A stretch of DNA of 62,833 bases from a virus. Of the stretch, positions 1,906 through 55,543 are shown piece after piece. The notes beneath the pieces were generated by a model. The model worked only from the letters and a program-made list of their open reading frames with translations, made no database searches and was not told the DNA's origin. The stretch covers positions 1 to 62,833 of the IMG/VR virus record IMGVR_UViG_3300033144_005983, one strand, 5' to 3'. Position numbers and translations under genes: made by a program. Position 1 is the first letter of the stretch. Each line of letters begins with the position of its first letter.

Positions 1906-4900
1906 ATGGCAGATCCAACAGAAGCTTTAAGTGGGACCAAAATAGATAAGCAAACTGGATTAACTAAAGATATACCAAATACAGTAAAAACAGTTAATAC
2001 CAGTGCAGATCCTACTGCAGCGCTTACTAATACTACGCAAGGATTAGAAAAAGTAAGAGCTAAACACTTACCTACTGATATAGATGTAGGAGGACAGGCG
2101 TACTCTCTTCAAAAACAAGGTTATGATACATTAGAAAGTTATCAAGAATATAGTGATGACTTAAGAGCTAATTTAGCTGCTCCAGATCCAGAGATGGCTA
2201 ATAGAATGAGAGCTGAACATCAAGGAGTTGGCGAACAACTTGGAACAGCTGCTTATCAATTACCTCTTAATATAGGTATGGGAATCTTAGAAACTGCTGG
2301 TATGATCGGAGATTTCCAAAACTATTTAGGAATGTTTGGAGTTATAGATACTGATTATGACAACTGGTTATCTAAATCTATGCGAGATGCAAGAACAGGT
2401 CTTGCAAAATGGGATCCTATTTATAGAGAAGCTCCTCAAGATGTATGGTCTCCTACAGACTCAGCATGGTGGATAGATAATATATCAGGATTAGTTGAAT
2501 CAGTAGTAGAGTTCGGTGTAACAGGTTTTGGAGTAGGTACAGGTCTTAAAGCTGGAGCAAAAGCTATAGGAATGGCTGCAGCAGCAGGTAGACTTGGAGC
2601 AGGAGCTGCTAATGTAGCAGGAAAAACAGCAATGGGGCTTCAGAAAGGTACTCAATTAATGACTGCAGCTAGTTTAGCATACTCAGAAGGAGTAATGGTA
2701 GGTATTAATGTATATGATACCGTTTATAAAGAATCTTTAGCTGCAGGTATAAAGAAAGAGCAAGCTGAAAAGAATGCTGCTAATGCGGCAACTACTACAG
2801 TTAGAATGAATATGCTTAATACTGCTCTTAATTATACAGCAGTAGGACAACTCTTTAAATCAACTAAATCTTTAAGAAATAGTGTAAGTAACGGATGGAA
2901 TAGGCAAACACTTAAAAGTGGACAAAAAGAAAACTTCTCAGAGTGGTTAACTAGACTTAAAGGAGAACCTAAAGTAATGAAACATCCAGGTATACTTAAA
3001 AAAGTAGGTACACTAGTTAAAGAAGGTTCTTTCGAGGCTGCAGAAGAATTGGTGAATGAAATATCTCAAAGAGAAGGAGAATTAGTAGGAAGAAGAGAAT
3101 CAGGAATTCTTTTACCAGAAGAAAAAGATTCAGATTTTGGAGATAGAGTACTACATGCCGCAACTTCTCCTGAAGGAACACTAGCTATGACAATGGGATT
3201 TATTGGAGGAGTAGGTAATACAATGTTTCTAGGAGGAGTAGATAAAGGACATAGAGCATATCAAAATAGACAACGAGCTAAAAATGGACAAGAAGCTCTT
3301 AAATCTCCTGAAGAATTAGTATCTGAATCCTATACTGCTGAACTAGAAGGACTTATAGATAAAGCAGAAAACCTTGAAAAAATAAATGATAGTCTTTTAG
3401 AAGCAGTAGCTGCAGGAGATGTGAAAAAGATAAAAGCAGCTCAACAGGCTTTAGCTTCAGAAAGTTTATTTTCAGCTTTCCAAAACGGAAGTCCTGACAT
3501 GATGATTGCAATGTTGGAAGAAATTGAAGGCATAGACGATACTACAATGGGACCTGACGGTCAAACAGATGCAGAAAGAGAGGGACTAGAAACAAATAAA
3601 CAATCTAACCAATATTATAAAAAAGTAGCGAGACAGAAGTTAAATGATATAGGTGAACTTCAAAATGATTACGAAGCTGTAATGGATAAGTTCTGGATGG
3701 GAGACCAAGAAACTATGAACTATGCCAGTAAAGTATTTGGCTATAAAGTTTTAATGAAAAGTGCTAAAAATACTTTAGAAGGCTCCGAACAAGATCTAGC
3801 AAAATTTGAATCTCAATTACAAGAAAGACTAACTAATGCGGGTTATGAAGGAGCTCCTGCAAGCTTAATAGAGACTTTATCAGACTATGATGCAAGTACA
3901 GAGGCATATAACGAAGTTCTTGCAGATATTAAAGCTATTGAAGCTATGTCAAGTATGCAAGATGGCAGAACAGTTTATAAAAAAGATAGGGTCTCTTCAG
4001 CTGAACGAACTAAAATTAGACAAAAATACGGTATAAGAGCTACTGAACGAATAGATAAAACTTTAGCTCTTATTAAGAAACAATTTGAAGGAGTAGAAAA
4101 AGAGACCAGAAAAAAAGCAACTGCTATTACTGAAGTTTTTAAAACATTCAGTGAAGATATTCTTTCAGAAGATGGAGAAAGTTTATTAGAAGAATTAGAC
4201 TCACGATCAGGAGATTCAATTAGACAGATATATAATATATTCAAAGAAAGAGGAGAAGGAGAAACAGGAGAAACAAAAGCATTAAGAGATGCCATAGAGA
4301 AATTTAAAAATATTATAAATCTAACTAATGTAGATTATAACAATGTAGTTCAAACTAAAGCTTTTATTGAGCATCAAAAACAAATGGTTGAGGCTTTTCA
4401 AAAAGAATATGACGAGCTTAATAAACCTGGAGCTTTAAATAAATGGTTAAAAGAAGAAAGAGAAAACAAAAAGAATGCGGTTGAAAAAGAAGCTGAAGAA
4501 AGAGCTAAAACTAAAGCAACTGAAAGGGACAAGAAAAATAAAGAAACAGCAGAAAATATAGATAGAGAAGTACAAGCAGAAAATGAAACTGATTTGTCTC
4601 CAGATCCAGAACCAGAAAGAACCTATACAGGTAGTGAAGGAGAAGTGATTACTGAAGAGGAATATAATTCCTATCAAGAAAACCAAGAAGATAGTACAGG
4701 AACAACTCCTACAAAAGAAGATATAGACTCAGGAGAAACTACAGAACTAAACGAAGAGGATGAAAAGAAAGAGCTAGAAAAAATACTAGGAGATCAAAAA
4801 GAACTAGGATTTCTGAAAGAAAATGTACTTTCTTTTGCATATCTCTCACGAGAATATCAATTAACAGAAACAGGTCTTGAAGGTAAAAAAAGATTTACAA

Positions 4901-7900: not shown

Positions 7901-10900
7901 TTGTAAAAAGCCCTAAAAATGTTTTAGGAAAAGTAAGATCTAAAACAGGAGGAGTTACAAATTTAAGACAGTTAATTGCTCCTGATGGAAACTTTGCAAA
8001 ATACTTATTTGATACGCTAGTTGTAGATGAAACTATAGGTAAAGGACATAACGTTCTTTATAAAGGAAGAGATAGAATAGTCCAAGAAGTTGGTACGGGA
8101 GATAAAATGGGGAAAATTAAGGTAGATGGTGCTTGGATACTAGCCAAAAATGTAGAAAAACTTGCTACCCTAGAATCAAAAAATCCTTTCCGTGATCTAA
8201 CTGAAGGACAAATAGGAAGAATACGAGCACTAGCCAGAGCCGAAGTAAGAACAACAGGAGTAAAAGTAGGAACTGGTTCTCGAAATGTGAGCAATCAGTT
8301 ATTATACAAGTACTCTCAGCTTTCTCAATTTACTGAACAAGCTAAACTATTACAAATAGCTAATGAATACGGAGAAGCAGAAAATAGAAGCCCTGAAGTT
8401 ACAGAAGCTGCAAATAATCTACACCAACTTTCTCAAATGCCTTTTCAAGTTAATTCAGAATGGATAGCTGCATTTGATACATTTATGATGCAAGAGACTC
8501 CTCCTAAAGGATTAAATAAAAATGAGACAAAAAGGTGGAAGAAAAGAAAAGAAAGATATAATAAAGGAGAGCTCTTACGTCAGGTTTTTAAAGTAGAGAT
8601 AGTTGATGGTTTAGCACATGGAATAAGAAGAGGAGTAGCTGCAGAAATAGCTGATATGACTCCTAAAGAATTTGAGTTCTATAAAATAGCTCTTTTTCAA
8701 AACAATGGGAATGAAAAAGTAGCTAAGTATATCTACATGACTCCTGCTGATAATACTGTAATACCTGTAATACATGCATTAAGGAAAAAAATTAATTTAG
8801 GATGGAATGATGCCGCTGAAGAAGGAAAGCCAGGAAGTATTATAAGTATAGGACTTGAAGGACAAAAAGCTGCTTATGATATTTTTGAAGCGGAAATGCT
8901 AAGAATAGCATCTTTTCAAAAATTAAGTACTGCTGAACAAGAAAAAGTAAACGGATATAAAGATGGTGCTAATAAATTCTTAATGTTTCCATTTCTTAAT
9001 AAAGAGATATTAAATAAAGAAGATATAGGAAAATTATGGGATGGGGAAGGAAATCTAATTATTCCTTTTGGTGATGAACAGAAATTAGAAATCATTAGTA
9101 TTATAGAACGAAACTTAATTGCTTCAATAGAAGAACAAGTAGCTGATTGGTCAAACTTAGGAATATTTGAGACATTTGAAAATGACAAAGGAGATAGAAT
9201 ATGGAATCTAGCAGGATTTTCTAAAGACTATATGAAAAGAATGCGGTCAAAAGACATGACCAAGCTGACTACGCAAACTCCAGGTATAACCATGGATGAT
9301 GTTCATCATAGATCTATTCAATCTGCTGCTGCAGACTATGTATTAAATAACATGTTTGCAAACAAAGAGATGTTTCAGTTAATGAGTGGAGACCCTGCTT
9401 ACTACTATAAAGGGAAAGAAGGAAAAACACTTCAAGAGAATCTGATGTCAACTTTTGCAAACCTTAACAAAAGAATAAGTGGAGTAAGAGCAACAGGATC
9501 TAAAGGATATTGGGCTAATCCTTTAATAAAGGATAATCCTATCCATGCTTCAAGAGCAACTTCTTTAAAGATTATAATAGCTAAAGATAGAGATGTTGCA
9601 ATAAAGAATATGGATCAGATGATCAAAATGAATAAGGTCATTGCTGCAAACTTTAAAAATAATCCTTCAACAGATGCACAGTCTCTTACAACTATGGGAG
9701 AACATCTTAGTACTTTAATGGCCTATGGTAAAATAAAAGATACTCAGTTTCAAGACTTAAGTAATAGATATGAAAAACAACTTAAAGCTTTAAAAGATAT
9801 TGTAGCAGCACGAAAAAGTAAAGATAAAGCGAGTGAAAAACAAGCCCTAAAAGAACTTGAGGATAATAAATTTACCGATAAAGAAATAGGTGAAGTAATA
9901 TTACAGCCGCTTAAACCTGTATATACAGGATTTAAATTAGAAGGAACAGCAAGAACAGCCAGAGCCGTCTATTTAAAAACATCTTCTTTTCCTTTGATCC
10001 CACAAATAGTAAAAGATCTAGACGTATCACAAGTTCTGTTACAATTGGAGAATTCAGGTGCTGATATGATGATATATGAAACAGGAGTAAAACTGGGAGC
10101 TTCTAATATTCAAAATGTTTTTGACAGTAAAGGAAACATGAAGGAAGATCTTGAGTTTAAAACTGAAGATGTAATTATTCTTCCAAGAAGTGGTTATAAA
10201 ATACAGCAAGAAAATCCTTATAAAGGGCAAAAAGATATAATTAGAGAATCTACTCAAGGACAAAAACTTCTATTTGAAGGTCTTCCTAAAGTATCTAGAA
10301 ACGGAACTGATATAGAAGCTCTACGTCATAAATTTGATAGCTTACAGAAAGATATATTAGATCTTAAATTTGATAAGTTCTTAGACGATATAGGAGCTAA
10401 AAAAACAATAAAGACTGTTAAAAATCTTGATGGTGAGGAATACGAAACAGAAAATGTATATATAGAAGACTTAAGTGCATTAAGAGATTTTTTAGTAGAC
10501 GAAGCTTTAGAAAGAGGATATCCATTAAATGATATTATGGCTCTTGGTCTCACCAAAGTCAATACATTTGATCTTCCTTTAGGTTTTCATTTAGCTGCAT
10601 TTAGAATGGAGCCCCTTATCTTAAGTTTAATTAAGAATAAAATACTACGTTCTGAATTACCTGGACAATCTTTTATTCAAGGATCTAGCGCAGGCTTTAA
10701 AGGAATAAAAGAATTCAATAAACTTTCTGCAGAAGAAAGAGGGGATATAGCATGGGCAGAAGGATACAATCCTGAAGAAGGATTAAGCTATATGGTTACT
10801 GAGGACAATAAAGTCCAAAGAGCACAGATTATTTTACCATGGACTATTAAAGGAAAGAATGGTAAGATAGCCGATATAAATAAGTATATCAAAAAAGAAA

Positions 10901-13900: not shown

Positions 13901-16900
13901 ACAATCAAAAAGGTAAAGACGGTAAAATGTATACTGTTTATCACAGAATCAGTACATTAGGAACTCGACAAGATGCTGAATATGATGCAAACGAAGCAAA
14001 CTTACTAAGTAAGAATACTGAGAATCTTCCTAAAACTTTAGCACCTACCCCTGAATCTCCTCAAGTAGTAGAACAAACTAATAATACTCAAAATCAAGGG
14101 CTTAAAAGAGCAGGAGATGGCCAAAACGAGATCATAGCAAAAAAAGATACTCCTATCCAAGGAGTAATTGATGCTATTAGTGAGCCTGTAACAGGAGACA
14201 CTCAAGCAGAAAGACAAAATCAAAGACTAAAAAATCTTCTCTCATATGTAGCAAGAACAAGTGGAAGTAATGCTTTTAATAGACAAATGGCTACACTATA
14301 TTCTAGAATGCTTGGGAGTTTAAGCGAAACTCCGATTGGTCTTAATATGTATGGAGCAGTAGAAAAAGGAGGAGAAGTAGTTCAACTAGATCCTGATGGA
14401 GGAATTTTAGTTACAGGATTTTTCGGAGGAAAATTTACTCCAAAAAAAGGATATGAAGCAGCTCATCTTGATTTATATCAAAGTAAAAAAAGTGATTATG
14501 TAAATACTAAATTTTCAAAAGAAGAGCAAATAGAATATCAAAACAATTTAATACTACATGAATTTACACATGTACTCACATCAGGACTAGCTACCAAAGT
14601 AACAATGGGAAAAGCTACAGCTACTGAGAAGAAATTCTATAAGAATATAGTTAAACTAAGAGATGCTACTCTAGATGCTTTAGTTAAATCAGGTCCAGAA
14701 ACTCAAATAAAATTTAGAATAAAAGGAAGTCAAGATTTTGGTACTAAAACATTAGGAGAATTATTTGGGGATAACTGGAAAGATGAAAAAACCAGAAGAG
14801 ACTATATAAATAAATTACAAGACGATTTTAAAAAAGGTGAAGGAATACCTAATCATTATATTAATGAATTACTATATCCTTTATTTGGAGAAAGAGCAGG
14901 CCAAGGAGATATAGAAGAATTCCTTGCAGGCATAATGACTTCCCCAACATTTCAAATATTTGCTCGTTCTCATTCAATTCCAACAGGTTACCAACAAGGA
15001 AAGAATCTTTGGGAAAAATTAATAGAGATATTCAATACTCTTTTTAAGAGCTGGGAAAAAGAAACTGGAATAACAGGAGTAAAAGACAGTATTCTTAAAT
15101 ATGGAATAGATCAAACCTTACAGATGGCTACTCTTCAAGCTGAAGAAATGGCAAAACTCAAAGAGAAAAAAACAATAGAAGATGGTGAATTCCTTGAAGA
15201 TGCCCTTGAAGATGATGTGGACTATAGCATATCAGGACCAGGAGAAAGAATTGTTATAGATGGAGATGATAATGTAGAAATACATGCTCGTAAAATGTAT
15301 AATAAACAAGATGCTGAACAAGTTTTTAAAATAATTGAAGACATATTTGATAGAACTTATGGTGCAGAACATGCTGAATCTGACAAATCGGGAAGAATAA
15401 GACGTTCTATGTATTATGGAGATGTAGAGTATGTATATGGAACAGGAAAGTCTGAAGTAAGAAGACCTCCAAATACAAATGTACCTCCTGCATTAAATAA
15501 AGTTATAAGAGATGTAGAAAAAAGATTAGGCTATCCTGAAGGTTACTTTGACGTAAATCTGATAAATGAATATAAAGACGGCAAGCAAAAAATTAATTTT
15601 CATACTGATAAAGAACCTATACTTGTAGATAACGGAAGAGTTGACCCTACTGTAGTAACAATAAGTTTTGGGGATACCAGAAGTATGGTTGTTAAGGCAA
15701 TAAGAGGAGGAAAAGAAGTTTCTATTCCTATGGAATCTGGAGTTGCTATAACTATGGGAACTCGTTCTCAACTTGATTACCTACATGGTATAAAAGAAGA
15801 AGGGAATAAAACCAAAAGATTTAGTATAACTCTAAGACATAACGCAGTTAAAGCTAGACAAGTAGCAGAAACAAGTGCCCAAGAAGCTTTAACTCAAGAA
15901 GAGTTGATGGAGCAGGCTGCGGGAATGACTGCAATACAGCAAAACTTTACAGATGGTTCAAAATACCAAGACGAAAATGGTGTATGGAAAGAACGTACTA
16001 TGCAACCTCAATTTAAAGGTAAATCTGCTATGGATCTTATATTGAGTGGAGATAGAACCAGAACTACAAGAGCTAAGACAGATATTCAAAGAATGGTAAA
16101 AGAATATGGGCTAAGCAGAATATCAGATCTTAAAGGAAAAATTGTAAGAATGACCTCTAAAGATGGTCGTTCAGTATTTACTAAAATTACAGGAGTACAT
16201 CAGTTTACTACAGAATATCAAAACCAAACTTGGCAACAAGAAGGATGGACAAAAGATGTGACAGATAGATTAGTAGGTGATTACCCTATTGCCTTAGAAT
16301 TTGAAGTAGTAGAAGGAACTGAAACTCATACAACAGACCCTAGAAAAACTACTGACGAAAAACCAAAGACAGTAGAAGAAATACAATCATTTTTTCCTAT
16401 AAGACGTTTAGACGCTTATACAGTTAGTGAATTGTTTCAAGGCATAAGTGGAGTACTACGTTTACAAGGAGCACCAGGAGTTCAATTAAAAGTATTTGGT
16501 AATAGAGTGCCGAAAGGAGTATATACTTATGATAATGTAGTTCAAGCTGTTCTTGATAAATTGACATTACGAGGAAAATATGACGGTTTACTTGAACTAT
16601 TAGAAAAAGAAAATCTTAAAGAAGAGGTTGAAGGAACAACTACTCCTACACAACCTGCAATAAAAACTGATCCTACACTACCTACAAAAATGGCTGATTT
16701 TACAAATCATTCAGGAGGAGCAAAAGGAGGAGATACACTTTGGGATAAAATAGGAAGAGGTTTTGGAGTAGTTAATCATAAACATTATAGAGAACCTGGA
16801 GCTACTGATGTAGATAGCGACCAATTAAAAAATCGAGGTACTAAACCTACTCATCTATCTACTGAAGATTATCAAGAAGGACAAAAGAAAGCAACTATTG

Positions 16901-19900
16901 CAGCTAGACAAATGGGAAGAGTTGCACCTACTCATCAAGTTAGATCAGCTTATATGATTAGAAACTGGGCACAAGTTAAGTATGCAGATGCTGTATATGC
17001 TATTGGAACTATAATTCCCAAAGGGACTGAAATGAAATATGGCAAAAAAGCCAAAATAGAGCAAGTAAAAGGAGGAACAGGTTATGCAGTTCAAATGGCC
17101 ATCAATGAAGGTAAACCAGTTTATGTATATGATGCAACACAAGATAGTTGGTTTCAATGGGAAGTCAAAACAGAAAGATTTAGAAAAACTGAAATTCCTG
17201 TACTTACTAAAAACTTTGCAGGTATAGGATCTCGTAGTTTAAGTACAAAAGAAGCTTGGGCTAAATCTGAACAAGCTATTAGTGATGTATATCAAAAAAC
17301 TGATAGTTTACTGGAACAATGGTTAGCAGAGACTGTTTATGATTCTCCTCAAGCTATAGCAAAAGGAACAAATATTCCACGTACAAAACTTTTTGATGTA
17401 AACGAAACTCGTACTGATCTTTCACCTGATCCCGTAGAGTTTACTGGAGTTGCTCAAGAATTAGTAGACTACAGAGGAACTATCTATAGAATAGAAGTCG
17501 ATAGTACTTTCCAAAAGAAACAAGTTAAAAACCATAGAACAGATAAGTTAGTTCCTCCAGGCACAGTAATTTATGAAAATGTTATAGCATTAGGAACTGA
17601 AAATTATAGTACTCCTAGTGAACCTCAATCTACAAATAATAGTGTAACTATTAATGGAGTTACGATAGACACAGGCCCTATAGCTCTTACAGAGGATCAG
17701 ACTATAGGCCTTCAAAAAATGGCAGATTTCTTTGATAGAAAAGATGCTAACGCAGGAAATGCATTTTCTTTAAGAGGGTATGCAGGAACTGGAAAAACTA
17801 CTTTAGTTACATTCTTTTTAAGTTATGTTGCCTCTAAAAGAGGAACCCAAGAAAAAATAGAACTTTCTACCCCTACTCATTATGCAAATGATGTTTTATA
17901 CTCCGTAATTTCAACTGCAGGATCTCATATTGGACTTTCTAATGTCGAACTACCAAGAACTGTAGACTCAAGATTGAGCACAGCTAAAATGATAGATAGT
18001 AATGGTAGAGTTGTATTTAGTAATAAATATCAAACACAAGAAAAAATAGAAAAAGGATTTCCTTATGGATCTGTACTTATTATAGATGAGGCCTCTATGA
18101 TAAAAGATGATTTTAATAAAGCAATAAGCATGCTAATTAAAAAGCAAAACATGAAAACCATATTCATGGGAGATCCTTTGCAGTTGCCACCTGTTGGAAA
18201 TAAACAATTAAGTGATGCATTGAATCATGGAGATCACTATGAGCTAACTGAAGTTAAAAGACAAGAAAAAGGTAATCCTTTAATGAAAGTTTTAGGAAGC
18301 ATAAGAAGTAATAGACTTTCTAGAACAGATAAATTTGAACATAAAACAGATGTAAACGAAAAAGGAGAAGGAATAGTTTGGACAAGTAATATGCAAACTT
18401 TTAAAGATACTATTGTAGAATATATGGGAAATTCTGCTATGAAATCAAGTCCTCTTTATGCAAAAGTAATAGCCTATACAAATGCTGCAGTAAAAGAATA
18501 TAATACGCTTGGAAGACGAGCTCTTTTAGGAGATAAAGTAATGAATGGAGCCTTTCAAGTAGGAGAACCACTTACTGGATATGCTAAATCTGGACAAATT
18601 GACAATGCAGGAACCTACGTTATTACAGAACAAACAAGCTACACAGATGAAATGCTTGTTGCAGATAATCCCGATCTTAATGAAAAAATAGGAAATACTT
18701 CTGATGCAGGAGCTTTAGTCAGTAAAATAACAGGTCAAAGAATGTCTGAACTCGCATTTACAGGAAAACTTGTTACAGTACAAAGAAGATATTCAGCTGA
18801 AGTAGAAGAAAAGTTAAAAAAAGAAAATGCTTATCCAAAACCTTTTAAAACATTCATATTTGATCCTGCTGCTAAAGCAGAAGGTAATATTGCAGTATTA
18901 GATGTACTTACTCAAATAGAAACTTATAAAAGTCAAATATATAGTGATGATAGTCTTACTTTAAGAGAAAAAAATAAACGCTATGCACAAAGTTTTGACC
19001 AATTAGACACAATTAAAGATCAGTTTCAGATACCTGCAGAACGATATCAAGCAAAAACTGCTTCACTAGGAGGTGAAACGATGTCGAAAGCGGAAGCAAT
19101 GAAAAGATTTAAAGGAGACTTTTATAAAGGAAAGTGGGTAGGAATAAAAAATAGTAATCTTTTCCAACATGAAAAAACTTTGGATTATGGCTACGCTATT
19201 ACTGCTCATAAAGCTCAAGGTTCTACTTATACAAATGTTCTTATAGACTGGGACAATATGGAAAAAGTATCAGGAAGAGTAATAAACGATTGGGATGGTA
19301 AACCATATATGACTGAAAGCAACTCTTTAAAATATGTAGCTCTTTCCCGACCCACTACTAAAGCTATTATATATAGTGCAGATGTTGTCCCAGGAGAACA
19401 AAAAACAAATACACTAACTGAAGACTCGCCTGCAAGTGCAGTAGGCCTAACTGGTGAAGTAGGCTTTGCAACAGGTGGAATAGATTTCAATGAATTACAA
19501 GATCTGGTAGCAAGTCCAGCAGAAGTCAAAAAAGCATTAGGTAAAGAGAAGCAAGAGTACGACGACTTTATGACAAGGCTAGATGATGATACTTCAGGAG
19601 AATTTGGACAGAAAAAAGAAGTTCCTATAGAATCTATAGCAAAAGACGCTATTTATACAGGAGTATTTTTAGGTAAAGAAGCAAGAAAAATGTTACTAGA
19701 CAAGTTTCCTGCTAAACATAAAAATGTTTTCATGCATCATTCAACAGTTCAGTTTAAACCTGAATCTGAAGATATAATGAATTTGGACTTTAATGGTCAC
19801 ACTGACTTAGTTGTTACAGGAATAGTTCAGGATGATAAAGGACAAGCCCTTATTGTAAAAAATCCTGTTTCTAAAATACCTGTTCCACATATTACAGTAT

Positions 19901-22900
19901 CAACTGCTGAAGGAGTTAAACCTTTTTACTCTAATGCAATGATAAAGAAAGCCATCAAAGAAGGCAATGTACAAACTTTAAAAGACCCTGTTGTAATCAA
20001 GGGTAAATTAGGAGTAATGTCAAAAAAGAATGATATATACCTTTCTAAAGATACTAAACCCGCTCCTAAAGTAATCCCTACTATAAGGAATCTTCCTTTA
20101 CATAAAATTGAAAAAGGATATGGATTACTTAATAGTAAAGGAGGTAAAAAACTATTTACCTTTATTAAAGGTGCCCAAGATATTGCAAAAAAAATAGAAG
20201 CTGAAAATCCTGGAGTACAAACAAAAATAGTTCCAGATACTAACAGAGGCTACATAATATTACTTTCAGATACTAGAGGTGATGGAACAATAAGTCAAGC
20301 ATCTCCTATAGTAAGTTCAAACAGATTAGGAAAACTTGATAATGCTACAAGAATAGTAGTTTCATCAATTGAAAATCAAATAGCTAACCTTAATAGAAGG
20401 ATAACTAGAGCCAGATCTCTTGATAAAGATGATAAGAGAGAAGCAATTGCTCCATTAGAGCATAGAATTACTGTACTAAAAGAGCAAATAGATACTATAA
20501 TAGATAAAAAAACCTCACAACAAGTAGTTGATATAGCAAAAGAACAGCTTCAATGGGCAAGTGATCTATTAGCAAAAAATGGAACAATGGCTGATCTTGA
20601 TTCAGTGATTAAAACTATCAAAGCATGGGAAGGAGTATTAGATAGGGTTAGTAAAGATACTGAGTTTAAAAGATATGATTTCCAAGACTTGCCTGCTATA
20701 TTGTTTGATCTTGAAAGACGATGGACTACTTCTGCAAAAGAAATAATAGGATATCAAGTGAATGCTTCATCAGGAATGGATCTCGCTATGGAAGATATTT
20801 TTGGTCCTCAATTTGATCCAGATTGGTTCAGTGCAACTACTCGAGGAGCATATACTTCTAAAGTACCCCTCGTTAGAATAGTAGATAAATGGCTACAAGA
20901 TGCAATCATTAAAGCTAATAATGAATTTACAGGAATAGCAAAAGAAGTAGACAAAGCTATTAAAGAATTAGCAGAAGCTCCTGGAGGAACTCTCATAGAG
21001 AAATTTGATATGATGGCTCAAATAGATGAAGAAGGAAAGAAAACAGGCAATCTAGTTAGAAGAGTAGGAATAGAATACTATAGACAACTAGCAGCACAAC
21101 GTTCAAAATTAGATACTGCCAGAGGTAAAGCAGGAAATGCAAATACAGCTTATAGAAATCATATCAAATGGTTAGGTGACAATACAGTAGGTATAAATAT
21201 AAACATGCTTATTGATGGTAAAGAAGTATATGATCCTCGTATTCCTATGGAAGATCAGAAAGTTAGATCTGCAGAAGAAGTAGCAGAGTATAGAAAAAGT
21301 TTAATAGAAAAACTAGGAGGAGACGAACAAGCTGAAGAAATAGTAGATGCTTTAATTGAAGATCAAAAATTAAGATTTGAGCAATATAAAAACGCAAGAG
21401 AAGAAATAATAATAGGTAACGAAGCTAAGTATCCTTCTGAAAAGAAAGAAGATATCTCTGGAAGATCTAATGCATTAGGATATTGGGAACAAAGAAATAG
21501 TCCCTTTATATACAGTAGTATAACAGAAAAAATATTAGATCCAACTAAATTGAAAAAAGTTGGTGGTGTAACCGAAAATGCTATTCCAAATAAATTTAGT
21601 TTTAAAAGTAATAGAGCTTCTCAATATGTTCCATCAGTACCTGCTTCTAAATTTTGGGATAGTAGGTTTAAGGAGATCATGAAAGATCCCGCATTAAAGA
21701 AATTCTATGAGTTTTATAGTGATAAAATGGAGGATATGTGGAGTGTGCTTCCTGATAATGGAGACATCAGTAAAAACCGAATACCTGATTTAGTCCGTGA
21801 CCTTCAAGAAAAATATACAGACTCTGCTCTTAGAGGAATAATTACAGGAGCACAAGACAGCTTAGTAAGTTTATTAACTGATAGAACTAATGCTGAAGTA
21901 GAATATGGAACTATAGATTCAGGTACAGGAGAAAAAATTCCTTCCATTCCATTATGGATGACAAATGAATCCTTAATGCCCGATCAAAAAAGTTATGATC
22001 TTGGAAAAATACTTAAAGCTTTTGCGGCCATGGCTACTAATTACAAACATAAAGCACGAGTAGAACCTCAAGTTATTCTAGCAAATAGAATGCTAAGAAA
22101 TGTAAAAGAAGCTACTGAAACTGAACGAGGAACTAAACAGATAGATGGACAAGGGCACTTAATGAGAAAAGAAGCAGGACTAACTCGTTCTAAAGCTCAA
22201 TTACAATACACTATAGAAGCCTTACTTTATGGCATAACAAGAGAACCTGGTACTCCTATTAAAATATTAGAAGATGTAGGAAGTGACTTAAAGATGAGTA
22301 CTGAAGCAAAAGAACAGCTACAACACGCAACTGAGGCAGCCGATCAATTTAAAAAAGATTTAGATAGTGGAGTTGAATACCTACAAGCCTACTCTGATTT
22401 TAAGAAGACTGTTAAAGACCTTCCTAAAGGAGTTAAATCGTTTATATATTCTGATTTAAACCAGAGACCTGAATTTTTAAGCTCAGATCCTGTCCGCCCA
22501 GTCTTTGAACTCACAGAAAAGAACAAAGAAAACTATATTAAAGCTCTACGAAAGCATTTTGAGCGTCCTATAACGTACCAAAGTGCAGGTGATGTGCTTA
22601 TAAGCTACACACAAGCCCTTGGAATGGGTTTTAACTGGTTCTCAGCCACTGCAAACCTTGTATTTGGTACATCTGCAGTGTTCAGACATGCAGCAGGAGG
22701 TTCTGAGTACACTACAAAACAAGCTAGACAAGCATTTGGAATAATGATGGCTTCTACTATGAATGGAGGAAAATACTCTCCTACACAATCAGGTAAAAAA
22801 GTAAGAGCTCTAATGGAAAACTTTGATGGTCTTGCTCAGGTAGTTGAATCTATGTATGGAGATGACTCTTCCAGAAGTGAAAACTGGTTATACTTCTTAC

Positions 22901-23853
22901 AAGAACGTTCAGAGTTCTTTGTATACGGACAGATCCTAGTAGCAATGATGCATAAAGAAAAAGCTATTGATAAAAACGGTAATGAAAGAACAGTATGGGA
23001 AGCTTATGATAACGATGGTGACTGGAACGTAGAAGAATTCCCAATTAAAGATAATCCAGGATGGAATAAATTTGCCAAAACAGACAAAGGAAGCGCTGAC
23101 TGGGTTAAATTCAAAAGAAAATACGATGCTACGGCAAAGAAGATACATGGTAACTATGATAGAAAATCTCCAGTACTTGGAAAGAAAGGAGTATTTGGAA
23201 GAATGCTCTTTCAGTTCAGATCTTGGGTTCCTGAAATGTGGTTTGACAGATGGGAAACAGAAAGATTTGATGAAGGTCTTGACCGATATACTAAAGGAAC
23301 ATGGAAAAGCTATGGAGCTGCTATAGAAAAATCAGGAGGAGCATTTGGTTTTGCTAAACTAATGGCTAAACAATTTGGAATGCAACTATTAGCAAAAGAT
23401 TCTCAGGAATTGCTTGAAATGGATGAAGTTGATCAGATCAATATGAGAAAGAATATGGCAGAGATATATTTTATAATGGCAATGATGAGTGCTTTATATC
23501 TCCTTAGTAAAATAGAAATAGAAGATGATGAAGATGAAGTATTTGCAAGTGCAGCTATGACATTAATGTTCAATACATTTAACCGTGTAAATACAGAGAT
23601 AACCTTCTTTATGAATCCAGACGCAATGTTACAACTCACAAGAGGTCAACCTTTCCCTGCATTAGACACACTCGCAGGTATACTTATAGATCTTCCCACA
23701 GCAGTAGTAGATACATTAATGGGAGATGGTATATATGAAAGAGGTGTAAGAGCGGGGCATTCAAAACTTTTAAAAGAATTTTTAGAACTTATGCCATTAG
23801 GAAATCAGTACTATAAATTTCATTATATGACTAATACTAAAATGGCAGGTTAA
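1906..23853 (+). CDS. Giant multidomain virion RNA polymerase polyprotein (7315 aa)
   Basis: One uninterrupted frame fills a third of the window. Approximate domain map by residue: Ala/Gly-rich, partly hydrophobic N-terminal region (113-280), as in injected virion proteins; charged coiled coil (840-905); acidic Pro-rich linker (1470-1520); RNA polymerase core with the catalytic loop MGSDFDVDKL at 3056-3065 (Asp 3059, 3061, 3063), preceded by a RIPLQGHSS-type motif. Then a FVFGDN/KGKGGQA domain (3131-3253), an HExxH zincin (His4218, Glu4219, His4222), an AlkB-type dioxygenase (His4566, Asp4568, His4627, Arg4638, Arg4644), an ASCH/PUA-like domain (4699-4805), a SLOG-like Rossmann domain (4930-5100), an SF1 helicase of Dda/RecD type (Walker A 5291-5299, Asp5394-Glu5395, later motifs to 5823) and a 2H-phosphoesterase-like pair (His5945-x-Thr, His5995-x-Thr). 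The C-terminal 1200 residues are helical with a hydrophobic segment at 7186-7207. DxDxD single-chain polymerases are known from crAss-like phages, where they enter with the DNA. The RNA polymerase call is firm; the accessory domains rest on motifs. Confidence 0.9.
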   Translation: MADPTEALSGTKIDKQTGLTKDIPNTVKTVNTSADPTAALTNTTQGLEKVRAKHLPTDIDVGGQAYSLQKQGYDTLESYQEYSDDLRANLAAPDPEMANRMRAEHQGVGEQLGTAAYQLPLNIGMGILETAGMIGDFQNYLGMFGVIDTDYDNWLSKSMRDARTGLAKWDPIYREAPQDVWSPTDSAWWIDNISGLVESVVEFGVTGFGVGTGLKAGAKAIGMAAAAGRLGAGAANVAGKTAMGLQKGTQLMTAASLAYSEGVMVGINVYDTVYKESLAAGIKKEQAEKNAANAATTTVRMNMLNTALNYTAVGQLFKSTKSLRNSVSNGWNRQTLKSGQKENFSEWLTRLKGEPKVMKHPGILKKVGTLVKEGSFEAAEELVNEISQREGELVGRRESGILLPEEKDSDFGDRVLHAATSPEGTLAMTMGFIGGVGNTMFLGGVDKGHRAYQNRQRAKNGQEALKSPEELVSESYTAELEGLIDKAENLEKINDSLLEAVAAGDVKKIKAAQQALASESLFSAFQNGSPDMMIAMLEEIEGIDDTTMGPDGQTDAEREGLETNKQSNQYYKKVARQKLNDIGELQNDYEAVMDKFWMGDQETMNYASKVFGYKVLMKSAKNTLEGSEQDLAKFESQLQERLTNAGYEGAPASLIETLSDYDASTEAYNEVLADIKAIEAMSSMQDGRTVYKKDRVSSAERTKIRQKYGIRATERIDKTLALIKKQFEGVEKETRKKATAITEVFKTFSEDILSEDGESLLEELDSRSGDSIRQIYNIFKERGEGETGETKALRDAIEKFKNIINLTNVDYNNVVQTKAFIEHQKQMVEAFQKEYDELNKPGALNKWLKEERENKKNAVEKEAEERAKTKATERDKKNKETAENIDREVQAENETDLSPDPEPERTYTGSEGEVITEEEYNSYQENQEDSTGTTPTKEDIDSGETTELNEEDEKKELEKILGDQKELGFLKENVLSFAYLSREYQLTETGLEGKKRFTTSTGDQKEGALHNDLESHTRFQPGDGLYTIEIAPSADAEILTEAEVSKGKPKTTTYGEWKKDKTAEEQAQGVPLVIKDAKGTIVAYIHDGRPAIEDGKEIVDTKGDPVSTFVYRRIAQKTEDNGDNWATQTEKLKRFRRTAIEMINTGQTPQIAITSKSYGSIIRNKVKGEVTEAQVNDVMGPNVQVGVSINGTLMKGDTPMNGLAIGGEIINDGDLPNGAVYVILPTPVEGKYFAAYVRAPQIGEITGIKTQSTEVDGDAYAGMVMLAIGIHFKTMANQNLTPSEENVVQKIKDHMDGLDITKSGYDLKKFVSYYVVDRAFDKEGKNAQKGNRTKPGYGQLHIRTDDEGNLKTIKYGRKETDQTTNISSWKAFEDKGQGLLDSLNATQLSVKGEFLGVEDDVNIPIPIDNGDGTYSIETIEGAGNEMTTGYEQFVKQNLKTKLKGEKVTLSDGVEEWVYFDQPVISFTPLTDTPPKDTTKDPEEQGTPPKQDLPPDIDLIPEIDLDLLDQLGEEGDEDGGVKLNEIDPEAIAEAGKLFDEQTRKLRDEGEIGQESPAISDPNDRLNKIIPGAFVGMDGKKLVQAADSIYTLMLNHYDKAVGKGKTPSADSLFSYALQQLKSKQGIYGIALKPGFTVEALLAQLKTAGKSKAYLNNIEEAYSIIIKDDKGNIDLDANRERAKEFGVVIDNFDGLKKLVIEKLGRIGIKINDKKLLEYIYEGEEAREELVDIEVSDGLTESYASKAKLKTDLGKTAPWQVRILFSRFPKIKTAIKNAKGDYVYTEETNYLGMRTFINYEDLYNNLLSILVNKPETFPAIINAIDKHAENTLNPQLIFLAGFLKNIDLNPKILQPNQLKSQLVVAFPANAEVQRVVAQITPDKNDGGGSMGSKLINFSGDTRNDTNLIISQWENNLASSTGETGLISEIGGKLFISPTKAANVKMIYEQKAKELLAIREGKDDIKRFGKKLNPEERIAEMASGIQDIFKLLGIELSHPLAVQLVKSPKNVLGKVRSKTGGVTNLRQLIAPDGNFAKYLFDTLVVDETIGKGHNVLYKGRDRIVQEVGTGDKMGKIKVDGAWILAKNVEKLATLESKNPFRDLTEGQIGRIRALARAEVRTTGVKVGTGSRNVSNQLLYKYSQLSQFTEQAKLLQIANEYGEAENRSPEVTEAANNLHQLSQMPFQVNSEWIAAFDTFMMQETPPKGLNKNETKRWKKRKERYNKGELLRQVFKVEIVDGLAHGIRRGVAAEIADMTPKEFEFYKIALFQNNGNEKVAKYIYMTPADNTVIPVIHALRKKINLGWNDAAEEGKPGSIISIGLEGQKAAYDIFEAEMLRIASFQKLSTAEQEKVNGYKDGANKFLMFPFLNKEILNKEDIGKLWDGEGNLIIPFGDEQKLEIISIIERNLIASIEEQVADWSNLGIFETFENDKGDRIWNLAGFSKDYMKRMRSKDMTKLTTQTPGITMDDVHHRSIQSAAADYVLNNMFANKEMFQLMSGDPAYYYKGKEGKTLQENLMSTFANLNKRISGVRATGSKGYWANPLIKDNPIHASRATSLKIIIAKDRDVAIKNMDQMIKMNKVIAANFKNNPSTDAQSLTTMGEHLSTLMAYGKIKDTQFQDLSNRYEKQLKALKDIVAARKSKDKASEKQALKELEDNKFTDKEIGEVILQPLKPVYTGFKLEGTARTARAVYLKTSSFPLIPQIVKDLDVSQVLLQLENSGADMMIYETGVKLGASNIQNVFDSKGNMKEDLEFKTEDVIILPRSGYKIQQENPYKGQKDIIRESTQGQKLLFEGLPKVSRNGTDIEALRHKFDSLQKDILDLKFDKFLDDIGAKKTIKTVKNLDGEEYETENVYIEDLSALRDFLVDEALERGYPLNDIMALGLTKVNTFDLPLGFHLAAFRMEPLILSLIKNKILRSELPGQSFIQGSSAGFKGIKEFNKLSAEERGDIAWAEGYNPEEGLSYMVTEDNKVQRAQIILPWTIKGKNGKIADINKYIKKEKGKLTIDTSKLTPELLEIFGFRIPLQGHSSMVTLEIVGFLPSYQGDLAIVPDGITTQMGSDFDVDKLFTYNYWTYELEDGKIVKYGSREHAEDKHRKDQERAAKKAKEKDSKDSEIGIPEDSTEGYARVAVTNEKYTPKFIKDNPDLLFVFGDNMERKGKGGQAIVRDESNTIGLRTKVSPTTKDGAYFYDEFLEDNKKAIDEDITAITKAGFGTQVVFPKGGLGTGLSKLKEKAPKTYEYLKKRLIEEFGFDNDLGTVDLDKIGIPYGNVIIDAETKGLPREEKTVEEVENELQNNMKGLQNKVVQVYNDVMEIPEVVEKALTPLDDAKNEINKTGERLEQIMTRPGTSPLFIAPTTQRDFFFINKDGQTALGVYSLFNTFLAQAQNVDIEFEYAIKNEETGKMENFPLLIKFKGEKGETLVGNRVSDTKLVSKDGLKNEVSAGFQSAGADNANDQALHKLNMESSTFGISLAFMAQGFDERYIGAFANQEAIQLWIDIYNRKSSKVTEDTIMGRTKASEEAFEEVERILLDKAKRDNTVPNPRVALNDQEKLDNVLSLNEMEDMLGKRADQKGTAYWGTQLNILAQFEVITQMGEDLSQAQNVTNTNQPMRHPGKTMLDAIELKDRIKKTVGTGERMVFLKGTEQLIGDVVLGPDGQVDILNPQGLIGTAAKYGELLATKLFGQLYSYESRAYTQALKGIEELSGSTYMPIERKAEVWGDLKQFVNAKVFEQVFGESLSDVRQRLLFDVKSEASTKDEIILAEASMARIIHYLQQTEWGQNSKLLKRLYPRMAEVIGEEPSRLEYMASGNEKIDEPDLLRELYSWLNSTQTIEVEGGRKIVLKDIALDLLKYSFASGGIQNPTNFMRILPYVSLQDMGYAKAIRDVDFKNPDILGPPLTSPFGYPNPSTFTRQYFQHKPYRTKTIVKFDKKNQIKKGDIITLLGGSDEVANGTEPEENKEFVTQVDLIGEDGKGFAYIHFLAYRNNETNKWELYEKIENNQKGKDGKMYTVYHRISTLGTRQDAEYDANEANLLSKNTENLPKTLAPTPESPQVVEQTNNTQNQGLKRAGDGQNEIIAKKDTPIQGVIDAISEPVTGDTQAERQNQRLKNLLSYVARTSGSNAFNRQMATLYSRMLGSLSETPIGLNMYGAVEKGGEVVQLDPDGGILVTGFFGGKFTPKKGYEAAHLDLYQSKKSDYVNTKFSKEEQIEYQNNLILHEFTHVLTSGLATKVTMGKATATEKKFYKNIVKLRDATLDALVKSGPETQIKFRIKGSQDFGTKTLGELFGDNWKDEKTRRDYINKLQDDFKKGEGIPNHYINELLYPLFGERAGQGDIEEFLAGIMTSPTFQIFARSHSIPTGYQQGKNLWEKLIEIFNTLFKSWEKETGITGVKDSILKYGIDQTLQMATLQAEEMAKLKEKKTIEDGEFLEDALEDDVDYSISGPGERIVIDGDDNVEIHARKMYNKQDAEQVFKIIEDIFDRTYGAEHAESDKSGRIRRSMYYGDVEYVYGTGKSEVRRPPNTNVPPALNKVIRDVEKRLGYPEGYFDVNLINEYKDGKQKINFHTDKEPILVDNGRVDPTVVTISFGDTRSMVVKAIRGGKEVSIPMESGVAITMGTRSQLDYLHGIKEEGNKTKRFSITLRHNAVKARQVAETSAQEALTQEELMEQAAGMTAIQQNFTDGSKYQDENGVWKERTMQPQFKGKSAMDLILSGDRTRTTRAKTDIQRMVKEYGLSRISDLKGKIVRMTSKDGRSVFTKITGVHQFTTEYQNQTWQQEGWTKDVTDRLVGDYPIALEFEVVEGTETHTTDPRKTTDEKPKTVEEIQSFFPIRRLDAYTVSELFQGISGVLRLQGAPGVQLKVFGNRVPKGVYTYDNVVQAVLDKLTLRGKYDGLLELLEKENLKEEVEGTTTPTQPAIKTDPTLPTKMADFTNHSGGAKGGDTLWDKIGRGFGVVNHKHYREPGATDVDSDQLKNRGTKPTHLSTEDYQEGQKKATIAARQMGRVAPTHQVRSAYMIRNWAQVKYADAVYAIGTIIPKGTEMKYGKKAKIEQVKGGTGYAVQMAINEGKPVYVYDATQDSWFQWEVKTERFRKTEIPVLTKNFAGIGSRSLSTKEAWAKSEQAISDVYQKTDSLLEQWLAETVYDSPQAIAKGTNIPRTKLFDVNETRTDLSPDPVEFTGVAQELVDYRGTIYRIEVDSTFQKKQVKNHRTDKLVPPGTVIYENVIALGTENYSTPSEPQSTNNSVTINGVTIDTGPIALTEDQTIGLQKMADFFDRKDANAGNAFSLRGYAGTGKTTLVTFFLSYVASKRGTQEKIELSTPTHYANDVLYSVISTAGSHIGLSNVELPRTVDSRLSTAKMIDSNGRVVFSNKYQTQEKIEKGFPYGSVLIIDEASMIKDDFNKAISMLIKKQNMKTIFMGDPLQLPPVGNKQLSDALNHGDHYELTEVKRQEKGNPLMKVLGSIRSNRLSRTDKFEHKTDVNEKGEGIVWTSNMQTFKDTIVEYMGNSAMKSSPLYAKVIAYTNAAVKEYNTLGRRALLGDKVMNGAFQVGEPLTGYAKSGQIDNAGTYVITEQTSYTDEMLVADNPDLNEKIGNTSDAGALVSKITGQRMSELAFTGKLVTVQRRYSAEVEEKLKKENAYPKPFKTFIFDPAAKAEGNIAVLDVLTQIETYKSQIYSDDSLTLREKNKRYAQSFDQLDTIKDQFQIPAERYQAKTASLGGETMSKAEAMKRFKGDFYKGKWVGIKNSNLFQHEKTLDYGYAITAHKAQGSTYTNVLIDWDNMEKVSGRVINDWDGKPYMTESNSLKYVALSRPTTKAIIYSADVVPGEQKTNTLTEDSPASAVGLTGEVGFATGGIDFNELQDLVASPAEVKKALGKEKQEYDDFMTRLDDDTSGEFGQKKEVPIESIAKDAIYTGVFLGKEARKMLLDKFPAKHKNVFMHHSTVQFKPESEDIMNLDFNGHTDLVVTGIVQDDKGQALIVKNPVSKIPVPHITVSTAEGVKPFYSNAMIKKAIKEGNVQTLKDPVVIKGKLGVMSKKNDIYLSKDTKPAPKVIPTIRNLPLHKIEKGYGLLNSKGGKKLFTFIKGAQDIAKKIEAENPGVQTKIVPDTNRGYIILLSDTRGDGTISQASPIVSSNRLGKLDNATRIVVSSIENQIANLNRRITRARSLDKDDKREAIAPLEHRITVLKEQIDTIIDKKTSQQVVDIAKEQLQWASDLLAKNGTMADLDSVIKTIKAWEGVLDRVSKDTEFKRYDFQDLPAILFDLERRWTTSAKEIIGYQVNASSGMDLAMEDIFGPQFDPDWFSATTRGAYTSKVPLVRIVDKWLQDAIIKANNEFTGIAKEVDKAIKELAEAPGGTLIEKFDMMAQIDEEGKKTGNLVRRVGIEYYRQLAAQRSKLDTARGKAGNANTAYRNHIKWLGDNTVGININMLIDGKEVYDPRIPMEDQKVRSAEEVAEYRKSLIEKLGGDEQAEEIVDALIEDQKLRFEQYKNAREEIIIGNEAKYPSEKKEDISGRSNALGYWEQRNSPFIYSSITEKILDPTKLKKVGGVTENAIPNKFSFKSNRASQYVPSVPASKFWDSRFKEIMKDPALKKFYEFYSDKMEDMWSVLPDNGDISKNRIPDLVRDLQEKYTDSALRGIITGAQDSLVSLLTDRTNAEVEYGTIDSGTGEKIPSIPLWMTNESLMPDQKSYDLGKILKAFAAMATNYKHKARVEPQVILANRMLRNVKEATETERGTKQIDGQGHLMRKEAGLTRSKAQLQYTIEALLYGITREPGTPIKILEDVGSDLKMSTEAKEQLQHATEAADQFKKDLDSGVEYLQAYSDFKKTVKDLPKGVKSFIYSDLNQRPEFLSSDPVRPVFELTEKNKENYIKALRKHFERPITYQSAGDVLISYTQALGMGFNWFSATANLVFGTSAVFRHAAGGSEYTTKQARQAFGIMMASTMNGGKYSPTQSGKKVRALMENFDGLAQVVESMYGDDSSRSENWLYFLQERSEFFVYGQILVAMMHKEKAIDKNGNERTVWEAYDNDGDWNVEEFPIKDNPGWNKFAKTDKGSADWVKFKRKYDATAKKIHGNYDRKSPVLGKKGVFGRMLFQFRSWVPEMWFDRWETERFDEGLDRYTKGTWKSYGAAIEKSGGAFGFAKLMAKQFGMQLLAKDSQELLEMDEVDQINMRKNMAEIYFIMAMMSALYLLSKIEIEDDEDEVFASAAMTLMFNTFNRVNTEITFFMNPDAMLQLTRGQPFPALDTLAGILIDLPTAVVDTLMGDGIYERGVRAGHSKLLKEFLELMPLGNQYYKFHYMTNTKMAG

Positions 23854-48134: not shown

Positions 48135-48338
48135 TTAAGGTTCAATCACTCCCACTTGATGGACATCTTCGTATGGTTCATCTCGTGCAATCCCACCATA
48201 TTTAGCGTAGACAGAGTCTCCGATAATATAGTATTCTGCATAAGACTGACAACAATCGCCACCACAGTCCCATTGCCAATCATAACTGCTATATTCACAA
48301 TAGCGTTCTGCTTCTTCATAAGATTTGAATTTTTCCAT
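48135..48338 (-). CDS. Small Cys/Tyr/Trp-rich protein, 67 aa
   Basis: It has an unusual composition: many Tyr and acidic residues and a DWQWDCGGDCCQSY cluster that could bind a metal. It is an isolated gene between two structured non-coding blocks. No family recognised. Confidence 0.6.
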   Translation of the reverse strand: MEKFKSYEEAERYCEYSSYDWQWDCGGDCCQSYAEYYIIGDSVYAKYGGIARDEPYEDVHQVGVIEP

Positions 48339-48447
48339 AATAATACATTTAGTTAATAATTAGTTATTATTAAATGTAATGAAGAAGGTATCTTAAGAGC
48401 ACCGTGCCAGAACGTCATAAATTCATGGTAAAAACCACACATCATCT

Positions 48448-54883: not shown

Positions 54884-55543
54884 ATGGATATGGATCTTAA
54901 AATAGAAGATAAATCTAAAAATGACTCAAAATATCTTTGGTTATTAGATCCTGGACATGGCGGTATGATCGACGGGCAATACCAAACAGCAGGAAAAAGA
55001 TCACCTAAATTTGCAGATGGAACTGTATTATATGAAGGAGAACTTAACAGAGCTATTGTACAAAGAATTGATAGTGCATGTAATGCAGCAGGTATAGATT
55101 CAATAGTACTTGTTCCTGAAGAAGAAGATATTTCTTTAAAGGAAAGAGTGCGACGTGCTAATGATTTTTATAAAGTTGATAAAAGAGCGGTCTATCTAAG
55201 TGTTCACGCAAATGCCTTTGGTAATGATTGGAATCAAGCTCATGGATGGTCCTGTTATACTTCAAAAGGAGAGACACGATCAGACCAAATAGCTACTATA
55301 TTTTATAGAATGATGGCAGCTGAATTTCCAGAAGAGAGAATGCGTAAAGACAATACAGATAATGATCCTGATAAGGAAGCAGACTTTTACGTTTTAAAGA
55401 AAACAGCTATGCCTGCCGTGTTAACTGAGAATTTTTTTATGACAAATAGTACAGAAGCATTAATGCTGCTAAATGAAAATATAAGAGATAGAATAGCAGA
55501 TGCACATATGGATGCGATATACTATTTAAGTAAAGTAATTTAA
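54884..55543 (+). CDS. N-acetylmuramoyl-L-alanine amidase (endolysin)
   Basis: The frame could begin at a GTG at 54830, but the ATG at 54884 clears the frameshifted spanin ORF and gives 219 residues. The LLDPGHGG motif (about 20-27), Glu of GELNR (about 52), SVHANA (about 106) and LTENFF (about 179) are the zinc ligands and catalytic Glu of Amidase_3 enzymes. It cuts the peptide off the glycan strand in peptidoglycan. No signal peptide, so a holin-type release is expected. Confidence 0.9.
   Translation: MDMDLKIEDKSKNDSKYLWLLDPGHGGMIDGQYQTAGKRSPKFADGTVLYEGELNRAIVQRIDSACNAAGIDSIVLVPEEEDISLKERVRRANDFYKVDKRAVYLSVHANAFGNDWNQAHGWSCYTSKGETRSDQIATIFYRMMAAEFPEERMRKDNTDNDPDKEADFYVLKKTAMPAVLTENFFMTNSTEALMLLNENIRDRIADAHMDAIYYLSKVI

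What the first reader, a model, noticed from the sequence alone, without database searches (positions are those of the whole stretch)
1906..23853. 7315-residue single-chain RNA polymerase fused to a set of repair, helicase and nucleotide-sensing domains
The DFDVD loop places the core in the single-chain polymerase family of crAss-like phages. What stands out is the one-ORF fusion with at least seven further domains: FVFGDN-type, HExxH, AlkB, ASCH, SLOG, SF1 helicase and 2H-like. If packaged and injected, one protein would deliver transcription, damage repair and possibly anti-defence functions at time zero.
Basis: partly seen in the sequence, partly recalled or inferred. Interest (0 to 1): 0.88.

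Follow-up and report, generated by a model that had tools for sequence, protein, structure and literature searches.

The report
Giant phage polymerase with swappable cargo
A virus of bacteria encodes one enormous 7,315-residue protein that joins its start-up RNA polymerase to a zincin-like (putative protease) domain and several repair- or defence-type enzymes; comparison with dozens of relatives suggests the polymerase is a conserved carrier whose enzyme cargo is swapped between phages.

Summary
The 7315-aa ORF (1906-23853, ~818 kDa) is real, and an independent contig encodes a 6647-aa homologue with the same fusion. The core is a Crassvirales (crAss-like) virion RNA polymerase: DFDVD aligns with DFDID of phi14:2 gp66 (E 2.6e-16), and an AlphaFold model of residues 2665-3860 matches PDB 6vr4 (Z 26.9, 828 residues). 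The chain is a three-gene fusion (g067-, g066- and g065-like proteins, separate neighbours in phi14:2), with extra domains between. ASCH was not confirmed. Giant crAss-like polymerases are already known (to ~6000 aa). What looks new is modularity. The zincin is ancestral; C-terminal to it lies a slot whose contents vary between relatives (helicase, AlkB, SLOG, DUF7831, NADAR, ADP-ribosyltransferase). SLOG identity is uncorrelated with polymerase identity (Mantel r -0.03; control 0.44), and SLOG also sits in an unrelated N4-type virion polymerase (phage Pylas). Most likely this is an injected polymerase carrying exchangeable early-acting enzymes, i.e. a polyvalent protein on a two-barrel polymerase. 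Packaging is inferred from orthologues; zincin processing and cargo functions are untested.

The parts
1906..23853 (+). 7315-aa giant virion RNA polymerase fusion ORF, ~818 kDa
   Evidence: homologous 6647-aa ORF in G001
1906..7905 (+). N-terminal module (residues 1-~2000); residues 70-635 homologous to phi14:2 g067, separate gene in 27 relatives, fused in 40
   Evidence: iterated HMM: phi14:2 g067 1.8e-71, cr8_1 gp92 1.4e-84; residues 700-2000 conserved only in G001
7903..13485 (+). two-barrel RNA polymerase, phi14:2 gp66-like (residues ~2000-3860)
11080..11094 (+). catalytic DFDVD loop, residues 3059-3063
   Evidence: aligned with DFDID of 6vr4
11179..11751 (+). insertion carrying DUF7831 (Pfam match 11296-11631), right after the catalytic loop; absent at this place in G001
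14083..15225 (+). zincin-like domain (residues ~4060-4440): HEFTH at 14557, E4338 at 14917
15442..15837 (+). AlkB-type 2OG-Fe(II) dioxygenase with intact HxD...H...R
   Evidence: nothing found, low-confidence fold
16693..17295 (+). SLOG / DprA-like domain (NHSGGAKGGD ... NFAGIGSR)
17623..19377 (+). SF1 helicase, RecD/Dda-like (Pfam AAA_30 match 17764-18345; Walker A 17776, Walker B 18076)
19603..20235 (+). 2H phosphoesterase-like domain (HHSTV 19735, PHITV 19885), shared with G001
20233..23850 (+). C-terminal module, phi14:2 g065-like; residues ~6880-7300 best conserved
   Evidence: g065 5.8e-83; Fpv1 gp34, cr118_1 gp15, cr125_1 gp20
55543..57597 (+). terminase large subunit (context: crAss-like late module)
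   Evidence: phrog_6681 1.3e-125
57594..59987 (+). portal protein (context)
   Evidence: phrog_6547 9.7e-174

Best explanation
A Crassvirales virion RNA polymerase that has become a carrier for other enzymes. The three proteins that sit in the capsid as separate cargo in crAss001 and phi14:2 are here one chain: N-terminal module, two-barrel polymerase plus zincin, and C-terminal module. An AlkB dioxygenase, a SLOG domain and an SF1 helicase sit in a slot between zincin and C-terminal module; a 2H domain follows at the start of the C-terminal part, and DUF7831 sits in a polymerase loop. The chain is packaged, threaded through the tail and refolds in the host. The polymerase transcribes the early genes while the cargo acts before any viral gene is expressed: helicase and SLOG on entering DNA, AlkB on methylated or alkylated bases, 2H (and possibly DUF7831) on cyclic-phosphate or ADP-ribose-type products. 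The conserved zincin may cut the chain into working parts. Shown: homology, fold, catalytic motifs, fusion states, cargo variability and its independence from polymerase ancestry. Inferred: packaging (by orthology), order of action, processing, cargo substrates.
For: Polymerase: phmmer 2.6e-16 to 6vr4; AF2 pLDDT 82, pTM 0.81; VIA Z 26.9, 828 residues, rmsd 3.0; next QDE-1 Z 11.7. Fusion: N-module fused in 40 and separate in 27 relatives; C-module fused in 22 and separate in 41, nearly always adjacent; N+R+C in 13 of 74. Zincin: HExxH in 55 of 69 (0.5 expected), median 884 residues after DxDxD; E/H/E near-invariant. Variable slot: 33 tails carry helicase (12), DUF7831 (2), 2OG (2), NADAR (2), ART-PolyVal (2), RNase H (1). 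Helicase is inside the polymerase ORF in 14 of 51 records and a separate gene in 11 (10 on the opposite strand), never both above cut-off (p 0.018). Independence: P versus L028 has SLOG 65% and DUF7831 54% while the backbone is 21-33%; SLOG versus polymerase Mantel r -0.03 (p 0.56), control polymerase half r 0.44 (p 0.011). Same cargo in an unrelated carrier: SLOG in Pylas N4-type vRNAP, which also has HExxH after its polymerase. Packaging.
Against: No virion proteomics for this phage; it is known only from a linear 62.8-kb metagenomic record. No cargo domain has been assayed. No structure search gave the zincin or SLOG segment a strong solved match (best Z about 5.5). SLOG comparison rests on 10 sequences, many near 30-40% identity where rank correlation is weak. 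The helicase either/or pattern may partly reflect shared ancestry. The DUF7831 insert could not be modelled (pLDDT mostly under 60).
Confidence: 0.72

Rival explanations
1. Ordinary crAss-like giant polymerase whose extra domains are a frozen, vertically inherited set that helps transcription (helicase unwinds template, others structural), with no payload role.
For: Giant multidomain polymerases are a hallmark of the order (PMC10136315; PMC7886860); a helicase is fused in many relatives, which would suit a polymerase.
Against: SLOG, AlkB and DUF7831 are absent from the 55-60% identical G001 backbone at the equivalent places but present, at higher identity or in another order, in distant relatives; SLOG lies N-terminal to the polymerase in L069 and L087 and in the unrelated N4-type polymerase.
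Confidence: 0.12
2. Polyprotein made late in infection and cut before packaging, so that only some pieces (polymerase, N- and C-modules) enter the virion and the repair enzymes act in the producing cell.
For: Zincin next to the polymerase in most relatives; the helicase is a separate, mostly opposite-strand gene in 11 relatives, so it can work as an ordinary infected-cell enzyme; polyvalent proteins are proposed to be processed by zincins (PMC5512222).
Against: Cargo domains lie between two modules whose orthologues are virion proteins; the same SLOG is in an N4-type virion polymerase. No data on timing of cleavage.
Confidence: 0.13
3. Metagenome assembly or frameshift artefact joining neighbouring genes.
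For: Record is a metagenomic fragment.
Against: G001 independently shows the same fusion; 13 of 74 relatives have the N+R+C fusion; no stop in 21.9 kb.
Confidence: 0.01

Closest known systems
phi14:2 gp66 virion RNA polymerase (PDB 6vr4) and crAss001 gp47/gp49/gp50
   Same: Two-barrel single-chain polymerase, DxDxD loop, same gene order (g067-g066-g065), late strand
   Different: Three separate proteins there; here one chain with cargo enzymes and an insertion after the catalytic loop
Giant crAss-like polymerases of Flavobacterium phage Fpv1 (gp33 4401 aa + gp34 1596 aa) and gut phages cr118_1, cr109_1, cr130_1 (5801 aa)
   Same: Same family; cr118_1 has a helicase, cr109_1 and cr130_1 a SLOG, cr130_1 also NADAR and DUF7831 in the giant protein
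   Different: Window is longer (7315 aa), has AlkB and 2H, C-module fused, DUF7831 inside the polymerase
Polyvalent proteins, incl. N4-type virion RNA polymerase (Iyer et al. 2017, PMC5512222)
   Same: Multi-enzyme injected protein; polymerase followed by HExxH metallopeptidase; SLOG shared with Pylas vRNAP; ART-PolyVal in relatives
   Different: Polymerase is non-homologous (two-barrel, not T7-like); crAss-like proteins, AlkB, ASCH and SLOG are not mentioned in that paper's main text
P23-45 gp96 tape-measure-fused virion RNA polymerase (PMC10770324)
   Same: Virion polymerase of the two-barrel superfamily fused into a 5002-aa protein
   Different: Fused to a tape measure; no enzyme cargo was sought or compared here

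Membership tests
Crassvirales virion RNA polymerase (gp66 family) | DxDxD metal-binding loop in a double-psi barrel | tested here: met
   DFDVD 3059-3063; three D invariant in 75 proteins; AF2 model matches 6vr4, Z 26.9
Crassvirales virion RNA polymerase (gp66 family) | Significant sequence match to a solved crAss-like polymerase | tested here: met
   6vr4 E 2.6e-16
Crassvirales virion RNA polymerase (gp66 family) | Genome with crAss-like TerL and portal and replication genes on the opposite strand | tested here: met
   phrog_6681, phrog_6547, primase, DnaB, SNF2-type helicase, PolA on minus strand
Crassvirales virion RNA polymerase (gp66 family) | Packaged in the virion and transcribes early genes | not testable with these tools
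   Inferred from phi14:2 and crAss001
Polyvalent proteins | Several unrelated enzymatic domains in one chain near late genes | tested here: met
Polyvalent proteins | Zincin-like metallopeptidase in the chain | tested here: met
   HExxH + distal E near-invariant; fold match weak
Polyvalent proteins | Domains specific to the class (LPD, ART-PolyVal etc.) | tested here: inconclusive
   ART-PolyVal in 2 of 33 relatives' tails, none in the window
Polyvalent proteins | Injected with the DNA | not testable with these tools
   needs virion proteomics or delivery assay
ASCH domain | Match to an ASCH profile or fold | tested here: inconclusive
   No Pfam match; AF2 segment low confidence
SLOG / DprA-like | Profile match and nucleotide-binding SGGAxGxD loop | tested here: met
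   phrog_768 3.7e-5; loop in 9 of the 10 aligned sequences (L084 deviates); fold confident but no strong solved match
AlkB dioxygenase | HxD...H iron triad and C-terminal Arg | tested here: met
   H/D in FHTDKE 4565, LDYLHGI 4623, RFSITLR 4638
2H phosphoesterase | Two HxTx motifs | tested here: met
   HSTV in HHSTV 5944 and HITV in PHITV 5994, conserved in G001 as HSTI/HITV

The most novel reading that the evidence does not exclude
Virion RNA polymerases of two unrelated folds have independently become delivery vehicles with a shared, horizontally traded cargo pool and a conserved adjacent protease that releases the cargo in the new host, so that host-takeover and anti-defence enzymes are at work before the first viral transcript.
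Probability: 0.35. Interest if true: 0.8.

Novelty: new variant of a known kind. Interest (0 to 1): 0.62.

Why it matters
Crassvirales are the dominant phages of the human gut and largely uncultured. If their polymerase is a carrier with a swappable slot, reading the slot gives a list of functions a phage needs in the first minutes, including likely answers to host defences, and gives a defined place to test it. The shared SLOG in N4-type and crAss-type polymerases points to the same design arising twice.

Tried and rejected
ASCH: Pfam, NCBIfam, PDB sequence, phage tblastn, viral contigs and AF2 gave nothing usable. PDB Foldseek with the zincin-AlkB-SLOG model gave no match under E 0.001; the second look gave only weak gluzincin (best Z 5.5, anthrax lethal factor metalloprotease domain, named only) and Rossmann-like matches (Z ~5), not used as proof. 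Viral-contig search with the C-terminal 1415 aa found no relatives. PADLOC hits to the helicase are generic RecD/SF1 models, not evidence of a defence system. Transmembrane segments in the N-module: none above a plain hydropathy threshold, so no membrane-channel claim. An assembly artefact was considered and rejected. The zincin was first taken as cargo, then rejected as cargo because it is ancestral.

Full report
OBSERVATION. The ORF 1906-23853 encodes 7315 residues without a stop, about 818 kDa. The window is itself an IMG/VR virus record, linear and open at both ends. Around it lie a crAss-like terminase (phrog_6681) and portal (phrog_6547) on the same strand, and primase, DnaB-type helicase, SNF2-type helicase and DNA polymerase A on the opposite strand. 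That is the block layout described for Crassvirales (PMC7886860). The closest cultured relatives by polymerase are Flavobacterium psychrophilum phages of the Fpv1/Fpv3 group (31% identity). No nucleotide-level match exists among 50,697 phage records.

POLYMERASE. The region matches the solved virion polymerase of Cellulophaga phage phi14:2 (6vr4, gp66; E 2.6e-16), with DFDVD aligned to DFDID. In 75 aligned relatives the three aspartates are invariant, together with K2729, G2731, Q2767, P2771, Q2784, G2920, R3020, P3022, G3036, G3057 and D3450. AlphaFold2 on residues 2665-3860 gave pLDDT 82.2 and pTM 0.81. The model matches 6vr4 at Foldseek E 1.8e-25 and VIA Z 26.9 over 828 residues at 3.0 A; next are QDE-1 entries at Z 11-12. 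DFDVD is the usual form in this family, so the sequence of the loop is not unusual.

FUSION. In phi14:2 three neighbouring genes, g067 (1797 aa), g066 (2180 aa, polymerase) and g065 (1421 aa), are annotated as virion proteins from MS/MS. Iterated profiles show that the window's N-terminal block belongs with g067 (1.8e-71) and its C-terminal block with g065 (5.8e-83), Fpv1 gp34 and cr118_1 gp15; residues 2000-2500 match g066 538-885. Across the 80 IMG/VR loci the N-module is fused to the polymerase in 40 and is a separate ORF, nearly always directly upstream, in 27. The C-module is fused in 22 and separate, nearly always directly downstream, in 41. All three are fused in 13 of 74. ORF lengths in 50 polymerase-bearing records run from 2420 to 6647 aa, so 7315 is the largest seen here but at the end of a continuum; a review already mentions up to ~6000 aa (PMC10136315). 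The 6647-aa homologue in G001 aligns along the whole chain except at two places: the DUF7831 insertion and the segment between residues 4438 and 5903.

ZINCIN. HEFTH lies at 4218, 1159 residues after the catalytic loop (about 970 without the insertion). In 55 of 69 relatives long enough to tell, an HExxH occurs 740-1300 residues after DxDxD (median 884), against 0.5 expected from shuffled composition. In an alignment of 33 tails the glutamate of HExxH is invariant, and the second histidine and a distal Glu-Phe (E4338 in the window) are at least 90% conserved. The segment folds with pLDDT around 88, but its structural matches are weak (Z 5.5). I read it as an old, probably active gluzincin-type domain of the family. 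Processing of multidomain injected proteins by zincins has been proposed for polyvalent proteins (PMC5512222); cleavage here is inference.

CARGO. Between zincin and C-module the window carries AlkB, a SLOG/DprA-like domain and a RecD/Dda-like SF1 helicase. A 2H domain with both motifs follows at the start of the C-terminal part and is shared with G001. The putative ASCH segment found no support. DUF7831 (the "FVFGDN" domain) is inserted inside the polymerase, at residues 3092-3283, directly after the catalytic barrel. G001 has a short linker there, and a phrog_2072 domain (the PHROG that also matches DUF7831) in its own slot instead. Other relatives carry coiled-coil-like extensions at the same polymerase loop.

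THE SLOT VARIES. Pfam over the tails of 33 proteins (the window and 32 relatives) finds helicase in 12, DUF7831 in 2, 2OG oxygenase in 2, NADAR in 2, ART-PolyVal in 2, and single cases of RNase H, GP30.3 and others. Mapping the helicase in 51 records: 14 have it inside the polymerase ORF, 11 as a separate gene (10 of them on the opposite strand), none both above cut-off. Under independence zero overlap has p 0.018, or 0.029 in records of at least 80 kb; shared ancestry makes this suggestive only. G027 (L052) carries SLOG, AlkB and helicase in the order SLOG-AlkB-helicase, the window AlkB-SLOG-helicase. G011 (L028) has SLOG-DUF7831-helicase. In L069 and L087 the SLOG lies N-terminal to the polymerase.

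EXCHANGE. Window and L028 share SLOG at 65% and DUF7831 at 54% identity while their backbones share 21-33%. L084 and L078 have polymerases 73% identical but SLOG domains 38% identical. Over ten carriers SLOG identity does not follow polymerase identity (Mantel Spearman -0.03, p 0.56), whereas the second half of the polymerase does (0.44, p 0.011). So the cargo has a history separate from its carrier. The same SLOG family occurs in giant polymerases of gut crAss-like phages cr109_1, cr113_1 and cr130_1, the last (5801 aa) also with NADAR and DUF7831. It also occurs at residue ~989 of the 3819-aa N4-type virion polymerase of Klebsiella phage Pylas, whose polymerase domains lie at 1599-2355 and which has HExxH at 2520. 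N4-type and crAss-type polymerases are not homologous (established knowledge; the two-barrel and T7-like folds), so the same layout has been reached twice.

HOW IT PROBABLY WORKS. Orthologues are capsid cargo: crAss001 virions contain gp47, gp49 and gp50, stored near the portal and thought to pass the tail partly unfolded; the capsid cargo zone was estimated at about 5.1 MDa, with six copies of each polymerase-associated protein given as an example (PMC10172136). Six copies of this 818-kDa chain would be 4.9 MDa, close to that figure, for what an estimate from another phage is worth. In the host the polymerase would transcribe early genes, as shown for phi14:2 (PMC10136315), and the cargo would act at once. 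Steps shown here: homology, fold, motifs, fusion states, cargo variation, incongruence. Steps inferred: packaging, ejection, refolding, cleavage, substrates. Plausible substrates from known families: alkylated or methylated bases for AlkB (resetting methyl marks has been suggested for phage AlkB, PMC7824862); single-stranded DNA or NAD-derived nucleotides for SLOG; 2',3'-cyclic phosphates or related nucleotides for 2H.

NOVELTY. Giant crAss-like polymerases, polyvalent proteins, and SLOG-helicase fusions in phages (PMC9503650) are each known. In the papers found here I did not find the crAss-like polymerase described as a carrier with an exchangeable slot, nor the shared SLOG with N4-type polymerases; the open-access library is incomplete and supplementary files were not readable, so this is a limited statement. 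I file it as a new variant of a known kind.

Noticed in passing
window 45186-45573 (-): A full-length GOLLD RNA (RF02032, 211.6 bits, E 2.1e-58) in a crAss-like phage; also in the relative G001 at 1859-2244 (206.5 bits) and weakly (81 bits, below cut-off) in G024 at 73466-73861; not found in the other 48 relatives searched.
   Followed up: partly
L014:9034-9095 (G001, + strand of contig): A Pistol ribozyme (RF02679, 49.3 bits) in the relative G001.
   Followed up: no
window 47548-50561: A gene-poor stretch of about 3 kb around the strand switch, with a 50-nt repeat pair (46289 and 48744, 82% identical) nearby; function unknown.
   Followed up: no
L008 (cr125_1) giant ORFs: Gut phage cr125_1 uses TAG as a sense codon heavily in the same polymerase block (78 TAG codons in gp21).
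   Followed up: no
L096, L097; LR745206.1 266359-269907: DUF7831 occurs in other phages as well (93 phage records), and SLOG and DUF7831 lie 3 kb apart in a 635-kb huge phage, LR745206.1, which suggests a functional link.
   Followed up: no
L103-L125: GTDB contigs labelled Rickettsiales, Erysipelotrichaceae, Acholeplasmatales, Sphaerochaeta and archaea carry related polymerases; probably mis-binned phages, hosts not established.
   Followed up: no
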